A DNA stretch of 64,000 nucleotides, from assembly GCF_019649055.1 (NCBI RefSeq), contig NW_026570356.1, positions 124,001 to 188,000 of the forward strand. Direction: 5' to 3'. Both the position numbers and the translations under genes were made by a program. Below, in pieces: positions 4,435 through 47,436 of this stretch. This DNA comes from Paramacrobiotus metropolitanus. Taxonomy: Eukaryota; Tardigrada; Eutardigrada; Parachela; Macrobiotidae. The number at the start of each line of letters is the position of its first letter. Within the stretch, counting starts at the first letter, position 1. A model generated the notes under the pieces. That model saw only the letters and a program-made list of their open reading frames with translations. It searched no databases and was not told where the DNA came from.

Positions 4435-4688
4435 TCCAGTCTACGGCCGGTTTATTCAAATGATTTCGATCAGCTATTTAGTTAACATCTTATTCCTTCA
4501 ACGAAATAAAATGATCCGAAAATACGCTAAAACGCAGATAGAATAAAAAGTGATTTTATGGCTTTTGTGCACTCAGACGCATTCACTTTCACTCAGAAGG
4601 GAATTTTTGTTAACTTCTTCCTCCCGACCTTGATCGAGTCTACCAGGTACTAAATTTCCTCTAAAGGATGCTTGCAATAGATGTTGGT

Positions 4689-5665
4689 GGTAGTTCGGTC
4701 AATCGTTTACCTAGCGGTCTGTGTCCTCTGGATAGTAGTGGTAGTTCGGTCACTCGTTCACCTAGCGGGCTGTATGCTCTGGACAGCAGCGGTAGTTCGG
4801 TCACTCGGTTAGCTAGCGGGCTGTGTGCTCTGGATAGTAGGGGTAGTTCGGTCATTCGTTTACCCAGCGGGATGTGTGCTCTGGATAGTAGTGGTAGTTC
4901 GGTCACTCGTTCACCTAGCGGGATGTGTGCTCTGGATAGTAGTGGTAGTTCGGTCACTCGTTCACCTAGCGGGCTGTATGCTCTGGACAGCAGCGGTAGT
5001 TCGGTCACTCGGTTAGCTAGCGGGCTGTGTGCTCTGGATAGTAGGGGTAGTTCGGTCATTCGTTTACCCAGCGGGATGTGTGCTCTGGATAGTAGTGGTA
5101 GTTCGGTCACTCGTTCACCTAGCGGGATGTGTGCTCTGGATAGTAGTGGTAGTTCGGTCACTCGTTCACCTAGCGGGCTGTATGCTCTGGACAGCAGCGG
5201 TAGTTCGGTCACTCGGTTAGCTAGCGGGCTGTGTGCTCTGGATAGTAGTGGTAGTTCGGTCATTCGTTTATCTAGCGGGATGTGTGCTCTGGATAGTAGT
5301 GGTAGTTCGGTCACTCGTTCACCTAGCGGGCTGTATGCTCTGGACAGCAGCGGTAGTTCGGTCACTCGGTTAGCTAGCGGGCTGTGTGCTCTGGATAGTA
5401 GTAGTTCGGTCATTCGTTTACCTAGCGGGATGTGTGCTCTGGATAGTAGTGGTAGTTCGGTCACTCGTTCACCTAACGGGCTGTGTGCTCCGGACAGCAG
5501 CGGTAGTTCGGTCACTCGGTTAGCTAGCGGGCTGTGTGCTCTGGATAGTAGTGGTAGTTCGGTCATTCGTTTACCTAGCGGGGTGTGTGCTCACAGCAGC
5601 GGTAGTTCGGTCACTCGGTTAGCTAGCGGGCTGTGTGCTCTGGATAGTAGCGGTAGTTCGGTCAC
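4689..5665 (+). repeat. 51-bp minisatellite, about 19 units, with a 204-bp higher-order period
   Basis: Each unit starts GGTAGTTCGGTCA and is 51 bp (17 codons). Unit types recur in a fixed order, so 4825-5016 and 5029-5220 are near identical, giving a 4 x 51 = 204 bp higher-order repeat. Two units are 48 bp (near 5400 and 5590). Because 51 is a multiple of three, long frames are open on both strands; the plus frame reads as repeats of LDSSGSSVTR.SPSGL. No start context, homology or splice structure supports translation, and it lies inside the proposed F-box intron. Confidence 0.9.
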
Positions 5666-6162
5666 AGCTTGGCTCTGTGAAACTAAAACCGTCTGGCCGG
5701 GTTTGGGAATATGGGCATTCAGAATATGGAAATGGTTTCTGCTGATTCTATACGGGAAAGCTGGGTTCGTGAATCCCTTTTTATTTTTTGTGGTAATAAA
5801 AATCTAGATTGTACAGTACGTACCGTAATATTATTCCGTATTATACGGAATAATTTGCGGACTGTGGATGCTGATTATCATTAAATTTTATCAATCACTG
5901 TCTTTAGTTTTGCTCGGACTGAAATGAAAGGTCAGCCCGTTTGAACGATTACTATGGTCAGTTTCTTTTACAGCTGCCTTCAAATGGCTTTCAACGATAG
6001 TTCTTATTCTTAAGCTCTGTTTTTAAGCGCTTTAAATGTAAACGAAGCCATCCACTAGCAGTATCGTTTGTGCTACTGCTAATTGGCTTTTCTAGTTTTG
6101 TAGAAGTAAAAGTCCAAACCTTTTTGATTGGTTGATCTAAAAAAGGTACCAGTTTAAATTTA

Positions 6163-17715: not shown

Positions 17716-17796
17716 TTATAAACTTAGGGAAGTTAGTGTAGCTTTAACAAAACTACGTCCGCCTCGAAAAGCGATTTAACGGTTATTGCTTTCAAA

Positions 17797-19026
17797 ATGG
17801 CAGTCGGACGTTTATTATTCCTTATTGTGACCTGCTTCCTCGTCTCGGTAAGGAGCACTACGACTCCCCCCACCCTGGTCATCCAGGACAGCTCCGGCCA
17901 AAACTACACCGTTGATCAGCGTCTGCAACATTACAACATCCCCGGATTAAGCCTGGCCGTCATCGTCAACCGCACCGTCGCATGGGCTCAAGCCTACGGT
18001 CTCGCGGACACTGCCACCTCACGACCGGTTACCACCGAAACACTGTTCCAAGCGGCTTCCATGAGCAAACCCATGGCGGCGTTCGCAGCACTGCATTTCG
18101 TGGAGACCGGGCAACTGTCGCTAGACAACGACATCAACGGGTATCTGAACGCCGATTGGTTGGTTCCGAATAGCAGCTACACGACGACGGAGAAGGTTAC
18201 CCTACGCCGATTAACGTCGCACACCGCGGGACTGACCGTCCACGGGTTCTATGGGTATCCCCGCGGTAATACCGTGCCGACGGTTGTCCAGGTTCTTCAA
18301 GGCACGAACCCGCCAGCGAACTCTCCGAAAGTGGAGTCCTTCGCGGTTCCCGGGACGAAATGGCAGTACTCTGGTGGTGGATACACGGTAATGCAGAAAG
18401 CCATGGTCGACCGGGTTGGAAAACCGTTCCCGCAGATTATGAACGAGGAGGTCTTCGGGAAACTGGGGATGACACTCAGTACCTACGAGCAGCCGCTCCC
18501 GGCAGCCCGGGAACCCGAAGCCGCTACCGGGTACCGCGAAAACAAAGTGGAAGTAGTCGGGAAGTGGCACACCTACCCAGAGATGGCGGCTGCCGGGATG
18601 TGGACGACCCCGTCAGACTATGCACGGTACATCATCGAGGTGCAGAATTCGCTTCATGGAACTTCGAACAAAGTTATTTCCGCGGCGATGACAAGAGAAA
18701 TGTTGACACCGGGACTTGGGAGCTACGGACTGGGACCCGGGACCATCGGCAATACCACAGACATGTTCGAGCATGGAGGGGCAAACGAGGGCTTCCGGTG
18801 CCACTTTATGGCGTCCGCGGTGGCTGGGAACGGGTACGTCATTATGACCAACTCGGATGATGGTGGAAAGATCGTCCCGGAGGTGGCGGAGAGTATCGAT
18901 CGCCTGATCGGGGCCAACTGGCCACGACCGCCGGATGCCGACAACGGAGTACGCCGGATGATCGGTGCTGGCGTTGGGATGATACTTATAAGTGTGTTGC
19001 TGCAGTTGGTTATCGAGCGTGTCTGA
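17797..19026 (+). CDS. Secreted/anchored serine beta-lactamase-family hydrolase (class C / esterase type)
   Basis: 409 codons, intronless. Residues 1-20 are a signal peptide (GRLLFLIVTCFLVS). The fold motifs are in order: SMSK at 88-91 (SxxK, nucleophile Ser88 and Lys91), YSGGGY at 191 (place of YxN) and HGGANEG at 326 (place of KTG/HxG). Residues 389-408 are hydrophobic and could be a membrane anchor or GPI-type tail. The family covers class C beta-lactamases, D-aminopeptidases and esterases, and the real substrate cannot be told. The length is normal. AATAAA lies at 19038-19043. A decayed inverted copy is at 46.1-47.2 kb, and the next gene on the same strand is the GH16 receptor kinase, an order conserved in the inverted copy. 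The intronless, GC-rich frame is compatible with ancient bacterial origin, but animal homologues (LACTB-like) exist. Confidence 0.9.
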   Translation: MAVGRLLFLIVTCFLVSVRSTTTPPTLVIQDSSGQNYTVDQRLQHYNIPGLSLAVIVNRTVAWAQAYGLADTATSRPVTTETLFQAASMSKPMAAFAALHFVETGQLSLDNDINGYLNADWLVPNSSYTTTEKVTLRRLTSHTAGLTVHGFYGYPRGNTVPTVVQVLQGTNPPANSPKVESFAVPGTKWQYSGGGYTVMQKAMVDRVGKPFPQIMNEEVFGKLGMTLSTYEQPLPAAREPEAATGYRENKVEVVGKWHTYPEMAAAGMWTTPSDYARYIIEVQNSLHGTSNKVISAAMTREMLTPGLGSYGLGPGTIGNTTDMFEHGGANEGFRCHFMASAVAGNGYVIMTNSDDGGKIVPEVAESIDRLIGANWPRPPDADNGVRRMIGAGVGMILISVLLQLVIERV

Positions 19027-21648: not shown

Positions 21649-21839
21649 TAGGTTTTCCTTCAGTTTAATACTTTGTTTGGAGTAATTTCAAACTGCGCGA
21701 TCTACTGGACTTAGTCTGGACGGTGGTATCAAGCGATTTGGCTGGGTAATCAGCATCCATACGGAGTGATTCATTCGTGGCTTCATGCCAATGCCGCGTC
21801 CGCTTGTGCTGTGGATGCAATTCAACGGGCGGCCGTACC

Positions 21840-24800
21840 ATGCTAGTTCGCAAATTTCTAGTTTTGCTCTGCTGGTTTGGCGTGCTGAATCGCACACGAG
21901 CGAAAGAAGTACGCATAATCTTCCGAGATGACTTCGACGGGGTCGCACTGGATCTGTCGCGCTGGAACCGCGCCAACACGAAGTCAACTGTAAATGGGGA
22001 GCTGCAGTGATACCGGTAGAACAACGCCCAGGTGTCCAATGAACGTTGCGTCTCATCAGTCGGCGGGAGATGTACAGGGCTGCAGTTACACTTCAGGGCT
22101 AGTGGATACCCGCGATAAGTTCAGTTTTACGTACGGTGAGATTGAGTGGCGGGCACTCGCTCCCGTCGGTCGCGGCATCCAGCCACAGCTGTGGCTACAG
22201 AATCCTCAGTGCGGCACCGGGATAACCTGCAAGTTAGACGATCCGCCGGCCTTCCATCCCCAGGTAGACCGCGATCAGGAGACATCACACAATATCAGTG
22301 CGATGAGTGTGAAGATGGTGGCTAGGGAACCAGATGTCTCGCGCGAGTTTCACGTGTATAAGATTGGATGGTTTCCGGATGGGCTGCAGTGGTCCGCGGA
22401 CGGGGTGGTGCTCCACTCTGTGATATGCCGCCCTTACGTCCCGACGGTGGCGCTGCAGGGGGTATTGAATGTTGCCGTTGGAGGGTTTTTCTCCGATAGT
22501 CCCAACAATGGTGACCGCTTCCCCATCGAGTTCCTCATTGACTACGTGGTGGTGCGCCAGTGCGACAGCCCTATGATATCACCAGTTCCCAGTACGCCAG
22601 TCACTCACCATGGTCAGGAAACCACACCGGAGCTACCGATACTAGCCGCCAGCCTGGGAGCCCTAGGAGCAATGCTGGCCGTCGCCGCTACCGGAATTTT
22701 TATTGCTTTATGTTCTGGAAGCAGCGTCGGCATTTGAGACGCGGCAACATGCGCAAGTGCACCGAGAGGTCCGATACCTTGCCGATAAATAACTGTCACC
22801 CGGCGCAGCCCGTTAATGCAAGCTGCGAGAAGATCATCCCGGCCATTCAGCAGTATGTCCACAGTCCACCTGCTGGAGATTCCTCTGGCTAACGTACAAA
22901 TTGGTAAGCCGAATTTATGGAATCGAGGAATGTTATTTCTTACTATTAGGCGGTGTGATGTACCAACCCCAGCTGTACTAGTGTCAAGGGCACGGGCTGT
23001 ATGACGTGCCCTGACGTGGCGGGACGACACAACTGAAGCTGGGCTTTTATTGGCTACTCTCTGCTCTGGCATATAATGCGCTAGCATTATATAGGAAGGC
23101 AACAAACAAACAACCTAGATTGCACAAGTGATGATCATTAGCAGCGCTAATGATCAAAAGCACTTAGCAGCTCGAAAAAATGAGAGGATGACACATAGAA
23201 CAAGAGCATCGGCATATTATACAGAAGCATCTAAGCAAGCTATGGCACGAGGAGTACTCGGGGCACTAGTATAAGCTTGTGGTTTTCCTCAGGTATATAG
23301 TGCGTGAGATCGCGACAACTGGCATGCAGATCTGTAAAAATCTTATGCTGTAATATTGTCATTTAATAAATTAGAGAGAGGTTGGTACTATTGTGAGAGT
23401 GCGAAGTTGTTGTGATGAAGTTTTTGGGAAAAGACGGATGAGCGTGGTGGCACAGTGGCTACTCTGGCTGGCGAATGCCATGGGTACAGTCATTTAAATC
23501 ACTTATACTTCTATTAAATATGTGTTCATATTAAATCGCTCGTGACATTGTGATGAGTCTGCTGGTAGGGGCTATTGTTGGAAAGGGCAAGCACGGCGTT
23601 GTCCGGAGAGGCGTGGCCACAGGACTGCGTGATCAACAACAGCCCCCCCCCCCCCGCGTGGCTATTAAGACGGCACGGAATGCAGCTGATCCAGAGCAGC
23701 ACCGACAGATCATCAAAGAAATTAGGATTCTGACGCAAGCCGGCCGGCATCTCAATATAATCAACCTCCTCGGTGCTGCCATCAAAGGTACAAATTTCTA
23801 ATACATGGCGTCGCACGCAGTGTACTTTAGTTTCTCAATCAAAACGCATAAGCAGACACGGGTGGCGGACATGTATTTCTAATAATCTAAGAGGTTGTGC
23901 TGTAAGGCCTGGTACTAGGATGGGCCAGAGTCGCACACCATTGTCTTACCGTGTAACACACGGCACAATGGACGTTTCCGACCCATTTTAGGGCAATAAT
24001 ACAGTCATTTACGGCACAACGGATTGGGCGTGCTTTTGGTGTCCATTATCACGACACTGTTGCTCTTTACATATTTTGCATTTGCAGGCGAAATACTGCT
24101 ATTAGAATATGCGGAAAACGGGTCACTTTTGAAATTTCTTCGGAGGTACCGGAAAACCGTTGCCCACAACTTTCCGGACGTCGTCCCGGTACTGCGTAAC
24201 GACGAAGCAGAAGCAGGCCGCCAGCAGATGTTGGCGAACATCGAGAATCGGATGGTCATGCAAGACGAGACCGTGGATGGACGAGCTTTATCGGCACAGA
24301 ACTTGATGGGTTTCGTGATTCAGATCAGCCGCGGCATGGCCTACCTTAACAGCCGCTCTGTCAACCATCGTGATCTGGCCGCGCGTAACATCCTGGTCTG
24401 CCATGACCGAGTGGTCAAGGTCTCCGACTTCGGCATGGTTCGTCACGCGGCAGAATACGTACTCCCTGACGATCCCGTAAGGACCTTTCGCGGGGGTTCA
24501 CCACAACCTAAAAAGCAATAATAAACCGTATAAAATGAAAGAAGAAAGAAAACAAATAAGAGAGAACTTAACAAAATCAAAGACCAAAAGCAATTTCAGA
24601 GTTCGTTGCCGGTGCGCTGGATGGCTCCAGAGTCTATCGAGCAAAGGACGTTCTTACAGAAGTCGGATGTGTGGTCATTTGGCGTCCTGACCCGGGGAAT
24701 TTTCATTTTGGGCGAGACGCCTTACACAAGTGACACTAAATGTCGGCAGTGCAACCGAGCTCCTCACCGCACTGATGGCCGGTATCCGCTTGGAAAGACC

Positions 24801-25213
24801 GGGAGATTGCCCAACCGCCTTGTATGTTGAAATTCGCAACTGTGTAGTCAAACCGCCCAGTCGTAACGTCATACTGTATTTGTGATAGGTACGATGCGAT
24901 GGTGCAATGCTGGCACCTGTCGCCCGCAGACCGGCCGGTTTTCAGCCATCTCCAGCAGGCGCTGACGGATCTACAGCTTAGGACGAAATGGTCGCATACC
25001 CACCATCTCCACATTCAGTACGTATGCAGCGCAGTGCACTGTACGGCTGAGTTCAAAATATCCGTTTCGTACAAGTGCACTGCACCGCTTGCGTACAGAA
25101 TGCTGGGTATGGGGCTATGCGACCATTTCGTCCTACATTGTAGTTGGTTGCGACTCTGCCCACACTATCTCCGGCTTGACGAGCCTTACCAGCAGTTCAA
25201 CGTGGCGCAGTAG
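21840..25213 (+). pseudogene. GH16-ectodomain receptor tyrosine kinase, copy A (decayed)
   Basis: Intended layout: signal peptide (LVRKFLVLLCWFGVL), GH16 domain ([18 protein letters not shown].. YGEIEWRA.. WFPDGLQWSADG.. [14 protein letters not shown]), linker, one transmembrane helix (about 22640-22720), then kinase exons 23569-23787 (GKGKHGVV glycine loop, VAIK), 24088-24476 ([11 protein letters not shown]), 24600-24821 ([13 protein letters not shown]) and 24889-25213 (QCWHLSPADRPVF). Splice phases agree with copy B. Damage: two stops (TGA, TAG) near 22008-22020, two single-base losses by 22080, a frameshift in the transmembrane segment, a small insertion near 22860 and a 2-bp loss near 24737. 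The kinase catalytic loop itself keeps [13 protein letters not shown] sits in the last exon. The gene follows the beta-lactamase gene as in the inverted copy. Confidence 0.85.
24981..25133. mobile_element. TA-flanked MITE (153 bp) inside the last kinase exon
   Basis: Terminal inverted repeats GGACGAAATGGTCGCAT at 24981-24997 and 25117-25133, flanked by TA on both sides (Tc1/mariner-type). Copy B lacks it. The kinase frame reads through the insertion without a stop and resumes with LDEPYQQF, which aligns with copy B. Confidence 0.85.
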
Positions 25214-25463
25214 GAACTTGTGAACGGGGTCGGGGATAAATCAAACTGTGCCCTTGGGTGATGTTTAGTGCTTACTGTGGTGGAAATTGTACGGCTATGG
25301 TAAATGCACAGCAGCAAGTGCATTACAGCATGATGGAAAGTGTTTGCGGTGCAGCACACTGCCGTTTTTGAAAGTTGCCGAAACCAGCCAAAAGAGAAAT
25401 GTTTTTGGGAATTCAACCAGAAATGGAGTGTGATGATAGACATTTTTGCTACCATAAATCTAA

Positions 25464-40110: not shown

Positions 40111-41530
40111 GATATCATGCTGCATGATTATTCATTCGTGTTACCTGACAGAGTTACAGATTTACTTCAATGGGAAGCATCTCCAGAGTCAGCTGATACA
40201 GTTGCTCCCGTTGAATATTATAGATATATTCAAGCACTATAATAAAGGTGAAGATGACCCCGCGCGGTGGCACGTCATTTCCCTGACCTATGTTTTGCTT
40301 GCCGAGAATTTGCTGACCAGTATAGCGATGATTAACAAAACTAGCTGACCGACGTATTACTTACCAACACTTCGCTTTTATAAAATTTTGCTGCCCCAGT
40401 TTTTGGAAAACTATTTCGTTAGCCGACCGCTCGGTTCCTTTTTCCTTAGTTTTCTTAGTGTTTCTCTCTTGGTCATTTTAGGTTTCATGCTGTTTTCTTA
40501 GCAAAGGCTTATGCTTTCTCATTCTATCTTACATTTACTTATGTTTTCTTGTTTCTTTTTGGTTTGGTGTGTTTTTCTTCCGAATGTTACGTGCAAAATG
40601 TCGGTTTTTTACATATATTTATTCAGCAGTTTATCAATCATCGAGTAGTTATTTCACGAAATTGCCAGGTACAAAGCAAACGGCAGATAAGAGCGTTGTG
40701 CCGCCTGTGAAAAGGCTGAATCAAAGCGCCACGTGCCCGTTCACACACGGCAGCGATGCACCAGGGGAAAGAGATAAACAGTACTAAAGCGAGGGGAAAG
40801 AGATGCCGTTTGCCTTGTATACATTTTGGCGGTCAATAGCAAGTTGTCAATCAGCAAGATACTGGTCAGTAAATTGCCAGTTTACCCTTCCGCAGACTTA
40901 GGCCAAATAGGGGCAGCCGTGATATCGGTTCTCTATCTCTGATCTTTTCAAAAGCTGCACAACCCTTTTTACGGATAGAAACTTTCGACTCATTGTTAAC
41001 CTTTTCTTAACGATAGCATTTTACCGTACATCGGTGTTTCTCAACATCCAGACGCGCCACGTTCACTATACGTTTTACAAAACCGGTTGTTGGTCGCTCC
41101 TTTGGTGTGCTGCCTGGAAACTCTGCTGGTCACTGTTAATTCTACACCTAAATTGGTTTTGCGCCTATGCAATGGCCGATCTCCATGAAATCGAAGAAAA
41201 CGACGGGACTGGCGACGCCAGTTACATCATCCGTTTTCTTTTTGAATATTTTGCAGTTTCCTTTATACTCCTGTGATCTTAATTTTTGAAAATGCATTTT
41301 GTGCGCTGACAGCCAAAGTTGATGACAAGGAATGCAGGTATAAAACGATAAATGACCAGTTTTCCCGATAAATCAATAACAGCAAAAAACTGTCAAATGG
41401 AGGGATAGCACTGAACAAAGACAGTGGCTGCTAAATGCTCCTTTTAAGCTTATGTAATTTCCTCTAACGATATATGTATACGGCAGACGGCACAGTTGAC
41501 ACAATCGATGGGTACGTAGTCTCAGTCTGA
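40111..41530. other. Intergenic stretch
   Basis: No recognised gene. Frames at 40569 and 41034 lack domains. This is the downstream flank of receptor-kinase copy B. Confidence 0.4.
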
Positions 41531-44500
41531 CTTATCCGCGACTGCATTCAGAAGATCCTGGTGCAACATGTTAAACCGCTGGTAAGGCTCGTCAAGTACA
41601 AGATAGGTATGGGCGGAGTCGATACCAACGAGGTCCGTCAGTACTCGCTGGAGCTGGCTGAAGACCGGCCTGTCTGTCTGCTGGCGGTAGGCGCCAGCAT
41701 TGCAACATCATGTCGTATCTATCAAAAATACAGTGTCGCATTACGTGTCGGTTAACTAACTGCGCCTGCCCACATACACGGCGTTAGGACAAACTGGCGG
41801 GTGTTCCAAGTGGACACCGGCCATCAGCGCGGTGAGCAGCTCGGTACCATTGCGGAAATTTAGGCCGTCACAGGTGTAAGGCGCTTCGCTCAGACTGAAA
41901 ATCTCCCAGGTCAGGACGCCGAAGGACCACACATCCGACTTCTGTGAGAACGTCCGCTGCTCGATCGACTCCGGCGCCATCCAGCGCAACGGCAGCGCTC
42001 CCTGAAATTACCTTTATTACTCAGTTTTCCTTGGCTTATTATCATCGCTTTTCTTAGGTTACGATAGACGTCCACGAATAGTCCTTACGCGTTCTGCAAG
42101 GAGGGTATATTCTGTCGCCTGCCGGGCCATGCCGAAATCGGCGATCTTGACCACTCCATCGTGGCAGACCAGGATGTTGCGCGCGGCCAGATCGCAATGG
42201 ATGATAGAGCGGCTGTTAAGGTAGGCCATACCGCGGCTGATCTGGAAGACGAAGCCCATCAAGTTTTGCACCGATAAAACTCCTCCGTCCACGACTTCAG
42301 CACGCAGGACTGGCATCGGAATCTCGCTGACAGTAAACTGCTGCTGGCGGCGAGATTCCGATGCCAGTCCTGCGTGTGGTCTGCCACGAATAGTCCTTAC
42401 GCGTTCTGCAAGGAGGGTATATTCTGTCGCCTGCCGGGCCATGCCGAAATCGGCGATCTTGACCACTCCATCGTGGCAGACCAGGATGTTGCGCGCGGCC
42501 AGATCGCAATGGATGATAGAGCGGCTGTTAAGGTAGGCCATACCGCGGCTGATCTGGAAGACGAAGCCCATCAAGTTTTGCACTGATAAAACTCCTCCGT
42601 CCACGACTTCAGCACGCAGGACTGGCATCGGAATCTCGCTGACAGTAAACTGCTGCTGGCGGCGAGATTCCGATGCCAGTCCTGCGTGTGGTCTGCCACG
42701 AATAGTCCTTACGCGTTCTGCAAGGAGGGTATATTCTGTCGCCTGCCGGGCCATGCCGAAATCGGCGATCTTGACCACTCCATCGTGGCAGACCAGGATG
42801 TTGCGCGCGGCCAGATCGCAATGGATGATAGAGCGGCTGTTAAGGTAGGCCATACCGCGGCTGATCTGGAAGACGAAGCCCATCAAGTTTTGCACTGATA
42901 AAACTCCTCCGTCCACGACTTCAGCACGCAGGACTGGCATCGGAATCTCGCTGACAGTAAACTGCTGCTGGCGGCCTCCTTCCGCTTCGTCGTTACGCAG
43001 TACCGGAACTACGTTCGGGAAGTTGTGGGCAACGGTCCTCCGGTGAAACCGCAGATATTTCAAAAGAGACCCGTGTTCCGCATATTCCAATAGCAAATGT
43101 GTTTCGCCTGGGAATGCAAAAGGTACAAGGAGCAACAGTTTCATGGTACTGGGCACCGAAAACATGCCAGTCCGTTCTACCAGAAATCTATCGTCGGATC
43201 AATGTACAATCAATGGGTCGTAGAGATGCCGTATGTTGCACAGTAAAATAAACCAAGCGACACTGCTACAATTTATTGCAAATTATATGTCTACCAGCGT
43301 GTGCATGCTCAAGCGTTTGATTGAGACACTACAATGCACTGCTTGCGGGTGCGGCTGCCTGTGGTGGAAATATAACTTGATCATGCTTTGTACTGCTACT
43401 TTTTACCTTTAACGACAGCACCGAGGAGGTTGATTATATTGAGATGTCGGCCGGCTTGCGTCAGAACCTTCATTTCTGTGATAATTTGTCGTTGCTGCTC
43501 TGGGCTGGTAGTATTACGCGCCGTCTTAATGGCCACCAGGGTCGGCAGCGGCTGACCACGCAGCCCCGTGGCCACGCCTTTCCGGACAATACCATGCTTG
43601 CCCTTTCCAACAATAGCCCCTACCAACAGACACATAGTGTCACGGTGACTTGTAATAAACTTCAAACGCTTGGTTGTTAACCGCACTTGTTGCATCGAAC
43701 GAGTGGCAATGCAACCGAAAATGAAAATAGTGGTTTATGGAATCAGAGAAGTGTCACACGTTGAGTGTCGCTTGAAAATATTTTGCCCGCGATATTATCG
43801 TATTGCAGCATACCGCTGCATGCGCTGCTCTCGATGCAAAAGAAGTAGTTACCGTATGAGCAAAAATGGCTGAAGCAGGGCGCACTCAGAAAACAGCCTC
43901 AGAGCGACAAAAAACATGTTTCGATTCCATGAATTCGGCTTACAAACTTGTATATTAGCTAAAGGGATCTCCAACAAGTGGATATATTGTTGGATAGCCG
44001 GTATGACCTCCTCATTGTCTGCATCAACGAGTTGCCCCCGGTGACAATTGGTTTTCGGCAGGGTGTCGGTGCGCTTGCGCATGTTGCCGCGCTTCAGGCG
44101 CCGGCGCTGCTTCCAACACATAAAAAGAATAAGAACGCCGATAGCGGTAACGACTAGCGTTCCTCCTAGGCTTCCAAGGCCGATGACTAGCCCCGGTGGC
44201 TCCGTTGGCTCCGGTGTGGCTACCTGAGTGATTGGCGCACTGGTGACCGATGACAATATAAGGATATCGTACTGGCGTACCACCACGTAGTCGATGAGGA
44301 ACTCAGTGGGAAAGCGAGTAAGGCTGCCGGGATCATCGGCAGAATCTTCTTTAACGGCGACATTCATTACCACCTGCTGCGCCACCGCGGGGACCTTATC
44401 CTGGCCTAATACAGAGTGAACCTGCTTTCCGTCCACAAGCCACTGCAGCGCATTCGGCGACCAGACTATCTTGTACATGTGGAAATCGTTCGAAAGGTCT

Positions 44501-45120
44501 TGTTTTGGATCCGCCATTTTCTCTCTCACCGTGCGAGACAAATTATGTATATTGACAACCGCTCTGGGGCTGTGTGATGGCTTAAGATCGCCGTCCATCC
44601 TGGGACTAAAAGACGGTGGCCCGTAACCATTGCAGGGTACCCCGTCGTGGCACTGCGGATTCTGCAGCCACAACTGTGGCTGGATGCCACCATCGGCGGC
44701 AACGCGTGCCCGCCACTCAATCTCACCGTAGAGAAAGCTAAACTTATCGCGGGTATCCACCAGCCCTGAAGTGAAATTGCAACCGCCGTACGCCTCCCGC
44801 CGGCTAATGAGACGCAGTGTCCCACTGGACACCTGGACGTTATCCGACCGGTAGTATTGCCGCTCTCCATTGACATTTGACTTGGTGTTGGCGGAATTCC
44901 AGTGCGTTAGGTCCAGTGCGACCCCGTCGAAGTCGTCTCGGAAGATTATCCGTGGAGCTTTCGCTCCTGCGCGATTAACAAGGGCAAACAAGAAAACTAA
45001 ACTGGAAAAGACTGAGTGAAAATTAGTGTTTAAACTAGTACGGTCGCGCGTTGATTTGAGCCAACAGCGCATACGTGTGCGTCGACGGTATGAACGTATC
45101 CAGCTCATCGAGCCCAGCAT
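41530..45120 (-). CDS. GH16-ectodomain receptor tyrosine kinase, copy B
   Basis: First exon 45120-43944: long N-terminus with a hydrophobic leader ([13 protein letters not shown], about 36-48), GH16 fold about 57-284 ([67 protein letters not shown]), Pro-rich linker, transmembrane helix about 311-334, then basic KQRRRLKR. The start may be the ATG at 45072. Kinase exons: 43619-43407 ([17 protein letters not shown]), 43107-42089 ([11 protein letters not shown], three tandem copies), 42001-41778 ([21 protein letters not shown]) and a last exon from 41718. All joins are phase-matched. The GH16 catalytic ExDxxE motif is absent, so binding rather than hydrolysis is expected, as in insect beta-glucan recognition proteins. 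Odd points: HCD instead of HRD, the triplicated exon and a 4-bp AGAC duplication in the last exon that shifts frame in the C-lobe. It may be expressed but impaired. Confidence 0.85.
42078..42970 (-). repeat. 312-bp in-frame tandem triplication of the kinase catalytic-loop exon
   Basis: Three near-identical 312-bp units (104 codons), each with [16 protein letters not shown] and a GTAAGG donor. Junctions at 42301-42376 and 42613-42688 carry 27-bp inverted repeats absent from the outer unit edge. Confidence 0.92.
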
Positions 45121-46144: not shown

Positions 46145-47244
46145 CTACGTCATAACAAAAATCATCCCCACGCCTGCACCGAGCACCGGACGTTCTCCAT
46201 TTTCGGCATCCGGCGGTCGCGGCCAGTTGGCCCCAATCAATCGATTGATACTCTCCGCCACTTCCGGGATGACCTTTCCACCATCATCCGAGTTGGTCAT
46301 AATGACGTACCCGTTGCCGGCTACCGCCGACGCCATAAAGGCACCTCATTCGCACCTCCATGCTCAAAAATATCTGTGGCGTTACCGAGGATCCCAGGTC
46401 CCAGTGTCAACATCTCTCTTGTCATCGCCGCGGAAATGACTTTGCTTGACGTTCCATGAAGCGAATTCTGCACCTCGATGATGTAGCGTGTAAAGTCCGA
46501 CGGGGTGCTCCACATTCCGGCGGCCGCCACCTCCGGGGAGGTATGCCACTTACCGACAACTTCCATTTTGTTTTCACGGTACCCGGCAGCGGCTTCGGCT
46601 TCCAGGGCCGTTGGTCGTACGTACTCCTCGTCATTCCAAATTTCCCGAAGACCTCTTCGTTCGTAATTAATCGGGAACGGCACTGCAACCCGGTCGACCA
46701 TGGCTTTCTGCATTACTGTGTAACCACCACCTGAATAGTGCCATTTTGTCCCTGGGACCGCCAAGGACTCTACCCTCGGGGAGTTCGCTGGTGGGTTCGT
46801 GCCCTGAAGAGCCTGGACGACCGTCGGAACGGGGTCGCCGTGTGGCAACCCGTAAAATCCGTGGACTTTAAGTCCCGTAGCGTGCGACGTTAATCGGCGG
46901 AGGTTAAACTTCTTGGTTGTCGTGTAGCTAATATCCTAAACCAACCAATAAGCTTTCAGGTACCCGTTGATGTCGTTGTCCAGCGATAATTGACCGGTTT
47001 CCACGAAATGCAGCGCGGCAAGCGCCGCCATGGGTTTGCTCATGGAGGCCGCTTGGAAGAGGGTGTCGGTGGTGACCGGCCGCGTGGCGGCGGCGTCGGC
47101 CAATCCAAAAGCTGGGGCCCAGGCGACGGTGCGGTTGATAATAACGGCCAGGCTTAATTCGGGAATGTTGTAATTCTACAAGTGCTCCTCGCCGGTGTAG
47201 TTCTGCCCGGCGCTGTCCTGGATGACAAGGATGGGCGGATTCAT
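46145..47244 (-). pseudogene. Beta-lactamase-family gene, inverted decayed copy
   Basis: Reading from 47244 down: MNPPILVIQDSAGQNYT.., then a stop at about codon 23, QAASMSKPMAALAALHFVET (SxxK kept), stop after YLKAYWLV, then KWHYSGGGYTVMQKAMVDR, a frameshift at FPINYERR, and EHGGANE before another shift. The final segment is GNGYVIMTNSDDGGK. Compared with 17797-19026 it lacks the N-terminal leader and a few residues before HGG. Clear pseudogene; all three active-site motifs are still readable. Confidence 0.9.
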
Positions 47245-47436
47245 CGTTTGTGGTTCAGTGCAGTCGTTTGTATTTTTTTGATGTGGTGCTTGTCACAGAG
47301 TCGAGAAAGTACGCTCCAAGAAAGGTTAATGCACACCCGATCGTCATTTTGTAAGCAATATCCGTTAAAACGCTTTTCGATGCGGAAGTAGTTTTGCTAA
47401 AATAACATAAACCTTCTGAAATTTGCCACAACTTCT

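What the first reader, a model, noticed from the sequence alone, without database searches (positions are those of the whole stretch)
41530..45120. Receptor tyrosine kinase with a GH16 (glucan-binding) ectodomain
One spliced gene encodes a leader, a GH16 fold, one transmembrane helix and a full tyrosine kinase domain. The ecto/TM exon and the glycine-loop exon share splice phase 1, giving IPLAN(V/I)Q then AIVGKGKHG, the usual juxtamembrane-to-kinase link of RTKs. The GH16 catalytic ExDxxE is missing, as in insect beta-1,3-glucan recognition proteins. A receptor that binds a glucan and signals by tyrosine phosphorylation is an architecture I do not know from described RTK classes. Ligand and signalling are inference.
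Basis: partly seen in the sequence, partly recalled or inferred. Interest (0 to 1): 0.92.

Follow-up and report, generated by a model that had tools for sequence, protein, structure and literature searches.

The report
Tardigrade receptor kinases with glucanase-like ectodomains
A water-bear genome carries at least 34 gene copies, some of them broken, in which a dead sugar-cutting enzyme fold for the outside of the cell is joined to a tyrosine kinase for the inside, a receptor design not seen in the papers searched; the copy first noticed is a damaged member of that family.

Summary
The reading is right in kind. The minus-strand locus 45120-41522 encodes a leader, a GH16 domain above Pfam's cut-off, one transmembrane stretch and tyrosine-kinase exons. 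This copy looks decayed: HCD for HRD, a private frame change in the last exon, an exon segment repeated about three times. It belongs to a large family in the same 170-Mb genome, very likely the tardigrade Paramacrobiotus metropolitanus. For 42 of 59 GH16 matches the nearest kinase match lies within 6 kb downstream on the same strand, at 34 different loci. Four fetched members gave unbroken models. Splice phases agree at all scorable junctions. One member encodes GH16, transmembrane stretch and kinase start in one open frame, so the fusion does not rest on predicted splicing. Ectodomain and kinase diverge together (Mantel r 0.87) and are under purifying selection. None of 20 receptor ectodomains keeps ExDxxE; a kinase-less GH16 gene does. 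Two tail tyrosines are conserved in 15 of 16 sampled tails and match the FGFR tail. Expression, glucan binding and immune role are inference.

The parts
43944..45120 (-). Exon 1: leader, GH16 domain, stalk, transmembrane stretch, juxtamembrane to LEIPLANIQ; ends in phase 1
   Evidence: ORF; PF00722 58.9 bits; donor
44962..45009 (-). Hydrophobic leader [16 protein letters not shown], after 37 further N-terminal residues (start codon uncertain)
   Evidence: position; hydrophobicity judged by eye, no signal-peptide predictor run
44272..44943 (-). GH16 (laminarinase-type) domain
   Evidence: for this copy; PDB matches were made with paralogue L002; position
44587..44619 (-). Place of the GH16 ExDxxE motif, lost; more diverged here than in the closer paralogues
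44113..44193 (-). Single transmembrane stretch, followed by a basic segment
   Evidence: position; aligned with paralogues; judged by eye
43620..43943 (-). Intron 1 (324 nt), phase 1
43407..43619 (-). Exon 2: glycine loop VGKGKHG, VAIK lysine, alpha-C glutamate
   Evidence: PF07714 36.5 bits; splice sites
42713..43107 (-). Exon 3: hinge, kinase insert, HCDLAARN (42823-42800), DFG (first copy), donor GAACGC|GTAAGG
42072..42975 (-). 312-bp in-frame tandem array, 2.9 copies, covering the second half of exon 3 and its donor; not seen in the window's other copy
   Evidence: donors
41778..42001 (-). Exon 4: WMAPES to CPNAV; phase 0 in, phase 2 out
41522..41718 (-). Exon 5: YDMMLQCW in frame, then a private frame change; in-frame stop at about 41594-41592; the family tail lies in another frame of the same exon
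   Evidence: relatives
21750..25220 (+). Second, also broken, GH16-RTK copy; other arm of an inverted duplication

Best explanation
The locus is a degenerate member of a large, otherwise constrained tardigrade family of receptor tyrosine kinases. In intact members a leader sends a GH16-fold (laminarinase-type) domain outside the cell. The fold has lost its catalytic motif, so it binds rather than cuts (inferred), most likely a beta-1,3-glucan-type polysaccharide of fungi, algae or bacteria (inferred). A repeating polymer would cluster several receptors through the single transmembrane helix (inferred). The split PDGFR/FGFR-type kinase would then trans-phosphorylate (inferred from intact catalytic residues), and two conserved tail tyrosines (YxxLDxPYxxFN), the first matching the FGFR tail tyrosine known to dock PLC-gamma (recalled), would recruit SH2 proteins, plausibly giving calcium and NFAT output (inferred). 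Shown here: gene structure, fusion, family size, loss of ExDxxE, kinase residues, tail conservation, purifying selection. Not shown: expression, ligand, kinase activity, pathway.
For: GH16 and kinase Pfam matches: this copy exon by exon; L002 and L006 full length (PF07714 E 2.1e-81 and 5.8e-80; PF00722 E 3.5e-16 and 9.6e-15). For 42 of 59 GH16 matches the nearest kinase match lies within 6 kb downstream on the same strand; for none is it downstream on the other strand. From the kinase side, 50 of 145 kinase matches have a GH16 or exon-1 match within 6 kb upstream on the same strand, against 8 of 145 in the other-strand control. One open frame in L009 covers GH16, TM and glycine loop. Splice phases 1/1/0/2 in 13 of 13, 8 of 8, 14 of 14 and 16 of 16 scorable junctions among 22 loci. 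Mantel r 0.868, p 0.0001, 19 of 21 loci. dN/dS GH16 0.16-0.29, kinase lobes 0.06-0.19 among L002/L003/L004/L006; GH16 0.04-0.10 among L001/L003/L005. ExDxxE absent in 20 of 20 ectodomains, present in kinase-less L021. L002's ectodomain matches 4dfs (GH16 hydrolase, 8.5e-37) and 3azx (laminarinase, 1.8e-36) best in the PDB. Its kinase matches PDGFR alpha at 2e-67; its tail aligns to FGFR1/FGFR2 tails. First tail tyrosine in 16 of 16, second in 15 of 16 sampled tails.
Against: No transcript seen. No ligand evidence; of 20 ectodomains most outside L001-L007 have also lost the GxWPALW loop, so they may bind something else or nothing. L009's kinase part scores 19.8 bits, below the cut-off of 23.1, since only the start of the N-lobe is in that exon. 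8 of 145 kinase matches have a GH16 or exon-1 match in the other-strand arrangement, so some neighbours in dense clusters are not one gene. The window copy cannot be a normal kinase as assembled. AlphaFold2 of the window ectodomain failed (pLDDT 35), so the fold rests on sequence. At least four of the 19 GH16 loci (L001, L005, L011, L014) look broken or incomplete, two of them among the three behind the low dN/dS. L003 has no leader after its first ATG. L020's GH16 match is under the Pfam cut-off.
Confidence: 0.6

Rival explanations
1. The particular copy in the window is a pseudogene, one of an inverted pair of decaying copies, with no function of its own.
For: HCD for HRD, private frame change in exon 5, repeated exon-3 segment; the other copy of the pair is broken in exons 1 and 4; GH16 dN/dS in pairs with this copy is higher (0.21-0.38 against 0.16-0.29).
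Against: Kinase-lobe dN/dS in pairs with this copy is still low (0.12-0.20), so any release from selection is recent; frame change and array could be assembly errors of a nanopore-based genome.
Confidence: 0.7
2. GH16 gene and kinase gene are merely neighbours and are transcribed separately.
For: No RNA data available here; 8 of 145 kinase matches stand in the other-strand arrangement.
Against: L009 single frame, conserved phase-1 junction, same order and strand at 34 loci, joint divergence.
Confidence: 0.02
3. The ectodomain recognises a self or developmental ligand (cuticle, egg-shell or cell-surface glycan, or a protein), not a microbial or food glucan.
For: Strong purifying selection on recent GH16 copies (0.04-0.10) is not the pattern of an arms race; RTKs usually serve development (general knowledge).
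Against: Large family with clustered copies, broken copies and variable ectodomains, as in recognition families.
Confidence: 0.3
4. The receptors sense food glycans in gut or mouth rather than infection.
For: Laboratory animals of this strain are fed an alga and a rotifer (passage in PMC8277472); a kinase-less GH16 gene with the motif intact sits in the same genome (L021).
Against: Nothing here separates gut from immune expression.
Confidence: 0.2

Closest known systems
Class III/V and FGFR receptor tyrosine kinases (PDGFR, FLT3, VEGFR, FGFR)
   Same: Split kinase with insert; best PDB matches of L002's kinase; FGFR-like tail YLxL; one TM
   Different: Ectodomain is GH16, not Ig repeats (Ig recalled as class feature); no Ig family
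Insect beta-1,3-glucan recognition proteins / GNBPs
   Same: GH16 fold without catalytic residues (insect side recalled)
   Different: Those are secreted, carry CBM39 (recalled) and act upstream of Toll (passages of PMC7056985); here the fold is the ectodomain of a kinase
GH16 laminarinases (for example PDB 3azx)
   Same: Similarity over nearly the whole domain, 1.8e-36 for L002
   Different: ExDxxE replaced; AxSxxD in 5 of the 7 loci L001-L007
Plant L-type lectin receptor kinases (recalled)
   Same: Same design: concanavalin-like fold outside, one TM, kinase inside
   Different: Ser/Thr kinase of plants, legume-lectin family; no common origin implied
EphA2 as beta-glucan receptor (abstract starts in the listing)
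   Same: A tyrosine-kinase receptor that detects beta-glucan
   Different: Ephrin-binding ectodomain (recalled), not GH16

Membership tests
Receptor tyrosine kinase | Tyrosine kinase domain with its catalytic residues | tested here: met
   L002 and L006: PF07714 over the full profile. Of 21 rows: Lys in 21, HRD in 20 (window copy HCD). Two cells there are alignment effects or gaps: L011 alpha-C Glu gap, L017 DFG column N although its frame reads DFG. The window copy itself fails (HCD, broken subdomain XI)
Receptor tyrosine kinase | Ectodomain, one TM and kinase in one polypeptide | tested here: met
   L009 single frame, gene models, phases; TM judged by eye; no transcript
Receptor tyrosine kinase | Ligand-induced tyrosine phosphorylation | not testable with these tools
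   needs protein
PDGFR/VEGFR/FGFR classes | Ig-repeat ectodomain (recalled) | tested here: not met
   no Ig family in Pfam scans of the window exon, L002, L006 and L009
PDGFR/VEGFR/FGFR classes | Kinase insert and class-type kinase sequence | tested here: met
GH16 family (sequence) | PF00722 above gathering score | tested here: met
   58.9 bits window, 59.6 L002, 54.9 L006, 47.1 L009; cut-off 22
GH16 active enzyme | ExDxxE | tested here: not met
   0 of 20 receptor ectodomains; kinase-less L021 has EIDVME
Insect beta-GRP/GNBP | Secreted, N-terminal CBM39, no kinase (recalled) | tested here: not met
   these genes have TM and kinase; CBM39 was not found in the genome, but the control set was silent, so that part is inconclusive

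The most novel reading that the evidence does not exclude
Tardigrades, reported to lack GNBP1/3 homologues, Toll intracellular components and NF-kB but to have NFAT homologues (PMC7056985), have moved beta-glucan recognition onto membrane receptors: a tardigrade family of GH16 receptor tyrosine kinases that senses microbial glucan and signals through the FGFR-like tail tyrosine, PLC-gamma and NFAT, a separate animal route from glucan to transcription.
Probability: 0.25. Interest if true: 0.93.

Novelty: new variant of a known kind. Interest (0 to 1): 0.8.

Why it matters
It adds an RTK class defined by an ectodomain that I do not know from described RTKs, present at 34 or more loci in one animal. 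It gives concrete candidate pattern-recognition receptors for a phylum in which the insect-type glucan-recognition and NF-kB genes were not detected (PMC7056985), and a case of an enzyme fold turned into a signalling receptor, with a kinase-less GH16 relative that keeps its catalytic motif in the same genome for comparison.

Tried and rejected
AlphaFold2 on the window ectodomain with the two window sequences gave pLDDT 35; no fold search was made on it. The CBM39 search found nothing, but no control genome rang, so it is not used as evidence of absence. A viral origin was looked for with a kinase query in viral contigs: 3 stretches matched a pattern, none encodes a relative. Bacterial origin of the ectodomain: 12 prokaryotic loci found from six short peptide patterns, best 34% identity over query residues 3-228, less alike than the genome's own kinase-less GH16 gene L021 (44.7% for its first exon against L002; 43% against the window copy); this is no proof of origin. 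The chance-neighbour reading was rejected, with the 8-of-145 control noted. Ten kinase loci without a GH16 match nearby were fetched and searched with a family GH16 profile built from 10 of 17 intended training loci: nothing significant (best E 0.58); so the kinase expansion also has members without detectable GH16. The kinase tree (32 loci, midpoint rooted, several weak nodes) puts L019, L031-L034 and L035 among GH16 members and L036-L040 apart, which fits one early fusion with later loss but does not prove it. The first PDB match of the kinase query, EGFR 9p9u, was set aside because its chain holds the kinase twice and the scores add up. NCBIfam gave only matches below its cut-offs.
Full report
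Source. The window is G000:C136:124001-188000 of a 169,799,020-base genome in 533 contigs. The published assembly of Paramacrobiotus sp. TYO has 170,483,395 bases, 684 scaffolds, GC 43.46% and a longest scaffold of 4,484,941 (passages of PMC8277472). Here contig C1 is 4,484,719 bases and window GC is 43.51%. The figures are close, not equal. I take the species to be Paramacrobiotus metropolitanus, which I recall as the later name of that strain (taxonomy). No marker gene was checked.

The gene in the window. On the minus strand exon 1 (45120-43944) runs without a stop from a leader through GH16, stalk and TM to LEIPLANIQ. It scores 58.9 bits against PF00722 (cut-off 22); exons 2, 3 and 4 score 36.5, 226.1 (three stretches, because of the repeat) and 65.6 bits against PF07714 (cut-off 23.1). 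Splice sites were placed. The kinase reads [15 protein letters not shown] and WMAPES. After [15 protein letters not shown] the frame departs from the family: the residues that match the family tail lie in another frame of the same exon, and the in-frame product ends soon after. A 312-bp unit of exon 3 is present 2.9 times at 99%, each copy with the splice donor. Units 1 and 2 are identical over 312 of 312 bases; the third, as cut, runs past the array's end and shares 288 of 312. If the first donor is used, the extra copies are intronic; if the last is used, the protein would have three catalytic loops. An assembly artefact is possible.

Inverted pair. A second copy lies at 21.7-25.2 kb on the plus strand, beside a beta-lactamase-like gene; the same pair is repeated inverted at 41.5-47.2 kb (matching arms 70-88% complementary). 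The second copy has HRD, reads CWHLSPADRPVF within one frame and shows a single exon 3, but is broken in exons 1 and 4. So HCD, the exon-5 change and the array are private to the first copy of this pair.

The family. PF00722 has 59 matches in the genome, exon 1 has 105 at E up to 1. For 42 of 59 the nearest kinase match lies within 6 kb downstream on the same strand; for one it lies upstream on the same strand, for one upstream on the other strand, for 13 further than 6 kb, and 2 have none on the contig; for none is the nearest one downstream on the opposite strand. Counted from the kinase side without the nearest-match rule, 50 of 145 kinase matches have a GH16 or exon-1 match within 6 kb upstream on the same strand, and 8 of 145 in the same geometry on opposite strands; I did not look into those 8. 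The 42 lead to 34 different kinase matches (my count from that listing). Only 120 and 134 candidates were scored in the kinase searches, so the number of loci is a lower bound; it includes broken copies.

Gene models. Of the 20 loci, 19 have GH16-like exons and L019 has none. L002, L003, L004 and L006 gave unbroken models of 729, 699, 738 and 730 residues with GH16, TM, kinase and tail; in L003 the first ATG comes after the hydrophobic leader, so its start is unsettled. L001 and L005 have frame breaks. The rest were read as exon frames (L007 and L010 also partly joined): L007-L018 and L020 show GH16-like and kinase exons, L010, L011 and L012 with two GH16 units; L011 has a broken exon 2 and lacks CW, in L014 the last exon was not found, and L020's GH16 match is below the Pfam cut-off. 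L009 encodes GH16, TM, juxtamembrane, glycine loop and VAVK in one uninterrupted frame of 399 residues; Pfam gives GH16 47.1 bits and kinase 19.8 bits, the latter under its cut-off because the exon holds only the start of the domain. Splice phases agree at every junction where both anchors were found (13 of 13, 8 of 8, 14 of 14, 16 of 16 among 22 loci); phases were not constrained, and some lower-scoring alternatives have other phases.

Selection and history. NG86 dN/dS among L002, L003, L004 and L006 is 0.16-0.29 for GH16, 0.21-0.40 for stalk, TM and juxtamembrane, 0.09-0.15 and 0.06-0.19 for the kinase lobes, and 0.34-0.56 for the insert in the five of six pairs that could be computed. Among L001, L003 and L005 GH16 is 0.04-0.10, although L001 and L005 are broken elsewhere. 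Many dS values are near or above 1, so ratios are rough. Ectodomain and kinase distances correlate (Mantel r 0.868, p 0.0001; 19 of 21 loci, L014 and L019 dropped for coverage), as expected if the fusion was duplicated as a unit. A midpoint-rooted kinase tree of 32 loci is compatible with one early fusion and later loss, with weak support at several nodes.

Ectodomain. L002's domain matches GH16 hydrolases and laminarinases in the PDB. In HMMER's alignment with 4dfs and 3azx the enzyme's EIDIME stands over AVSVID. Of 20 receptor ectodomains none keeps E..D..E; L004 and L009 end the hexamer in E (for L010-L012 the script read one of two units, the other shows no such motif by eye). Among the loci I saw the motif only in L021, EIDVMEFRG. 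L001-L007 keep the W of the GxWPALW loop (L006 GVWSVLW, L007 GVWTALW); both window copies read GIQPQLW; L008-L018 have other letters there. Whether that loop binds sugar here is inference from GH16 enzymes.

Kinase and tail. L002's kinase matches PDGFR alpha (2e-67), VEGFR1, FLT3 and FGFR1. C-lobe plus tail matches FGFR1 and FGFR2 best after the doubled EGFR chain, and [13 protein letters not shown] aligns to the FGFR1 stretch EYLDLSMPLDQY. That tyrosine is the PLC-gamma site in FGFR1 (recalled). In 16 sampled tails of 22 loci the first tyrosine is present in 16, the second in 15. Conservation of a non-catalytic tail over members with down to 44% kinase identity to L002 argues for a shared docking role; that it docks PLC-gamma is inference.

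Literature. All-term searches: tardigrade with receptor tyrosine kinase and glycoside hydrolase (0 papers), GH16 with tyrosine kinase and transmembrane, hydrolase family 16 with tyrosine kinase, tardigrade with receptor tyrosine kinases. I saw their listings (titles, starts of abstracts) and no such receptor in them; two searches were broader, 2,947 and 5,654 papers with 20 listed each, and their listings show none either. Of, PMC11024359 counts nine RTK contigs in two tardigrade species (passages). PMC5531438 mentions 27 kinase clusters among tardigrade-only clusters with congruent architecture (passage), which could include this family. PMC8662651 (passages) describes ectodomain shuffling in RTKs and has no occurrence of glyco, lectin or carbohydrate. 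PMC11191345 on this species has no occurrence of kinase or glucan. PMC7056985 (abstract and passages) reports no detected GNBP1/3, no Toll intracellular components and no NF-kB in tardigrades, and NFAT homologues. Only open-licence PMC papers were searchable, and no other eukaryotic genome was at hand.

Verdict. What it binds and signals is a reasoned guess.

Noticed in passing
window 17737-19026 (+) and about 46146-47250 (-): Two beta-lactamase/serine-hydrolase-like genes (PF00144 tested on the minus copy only), one in each arm of the inverted duplication: the plus copy lies in one open frame of 429 codons, the minus copy is split between frames.
   Followed up: partly
L010, L011, L012: Family members with two GH16 units in the ectodomain.
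   Followed up: partly
L031-L040: Related tyrosine-kinase loci without a detectable GH16 domain nearby: the kinase expansion is wider than the GH16 receptors.
   Followed up: partly
L021 (G000:C25:1200600-1203200): Kinase-less GH16 gene with EIDVME intact, a possible active glucanase and a relative of the receptor ectodomains.
   Followed up: partly
L023, L024, L028: GH16-like exons followed by a transmembrane-like stretch, with no kinase match within 6 kb: possible kinase-less membrane forms or remnants.
   Followed up: no
G000:C96:55000-76700 (part in L029): Cluster of GH16-like exon matches with no kinase match within 6 kb.
   Followed up: no
window 4661-5807: Repetitive stretch open on both strands (AHSPLGERVTELPLLSR-type repeats), probably a minisatellite.
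   Followed up: no
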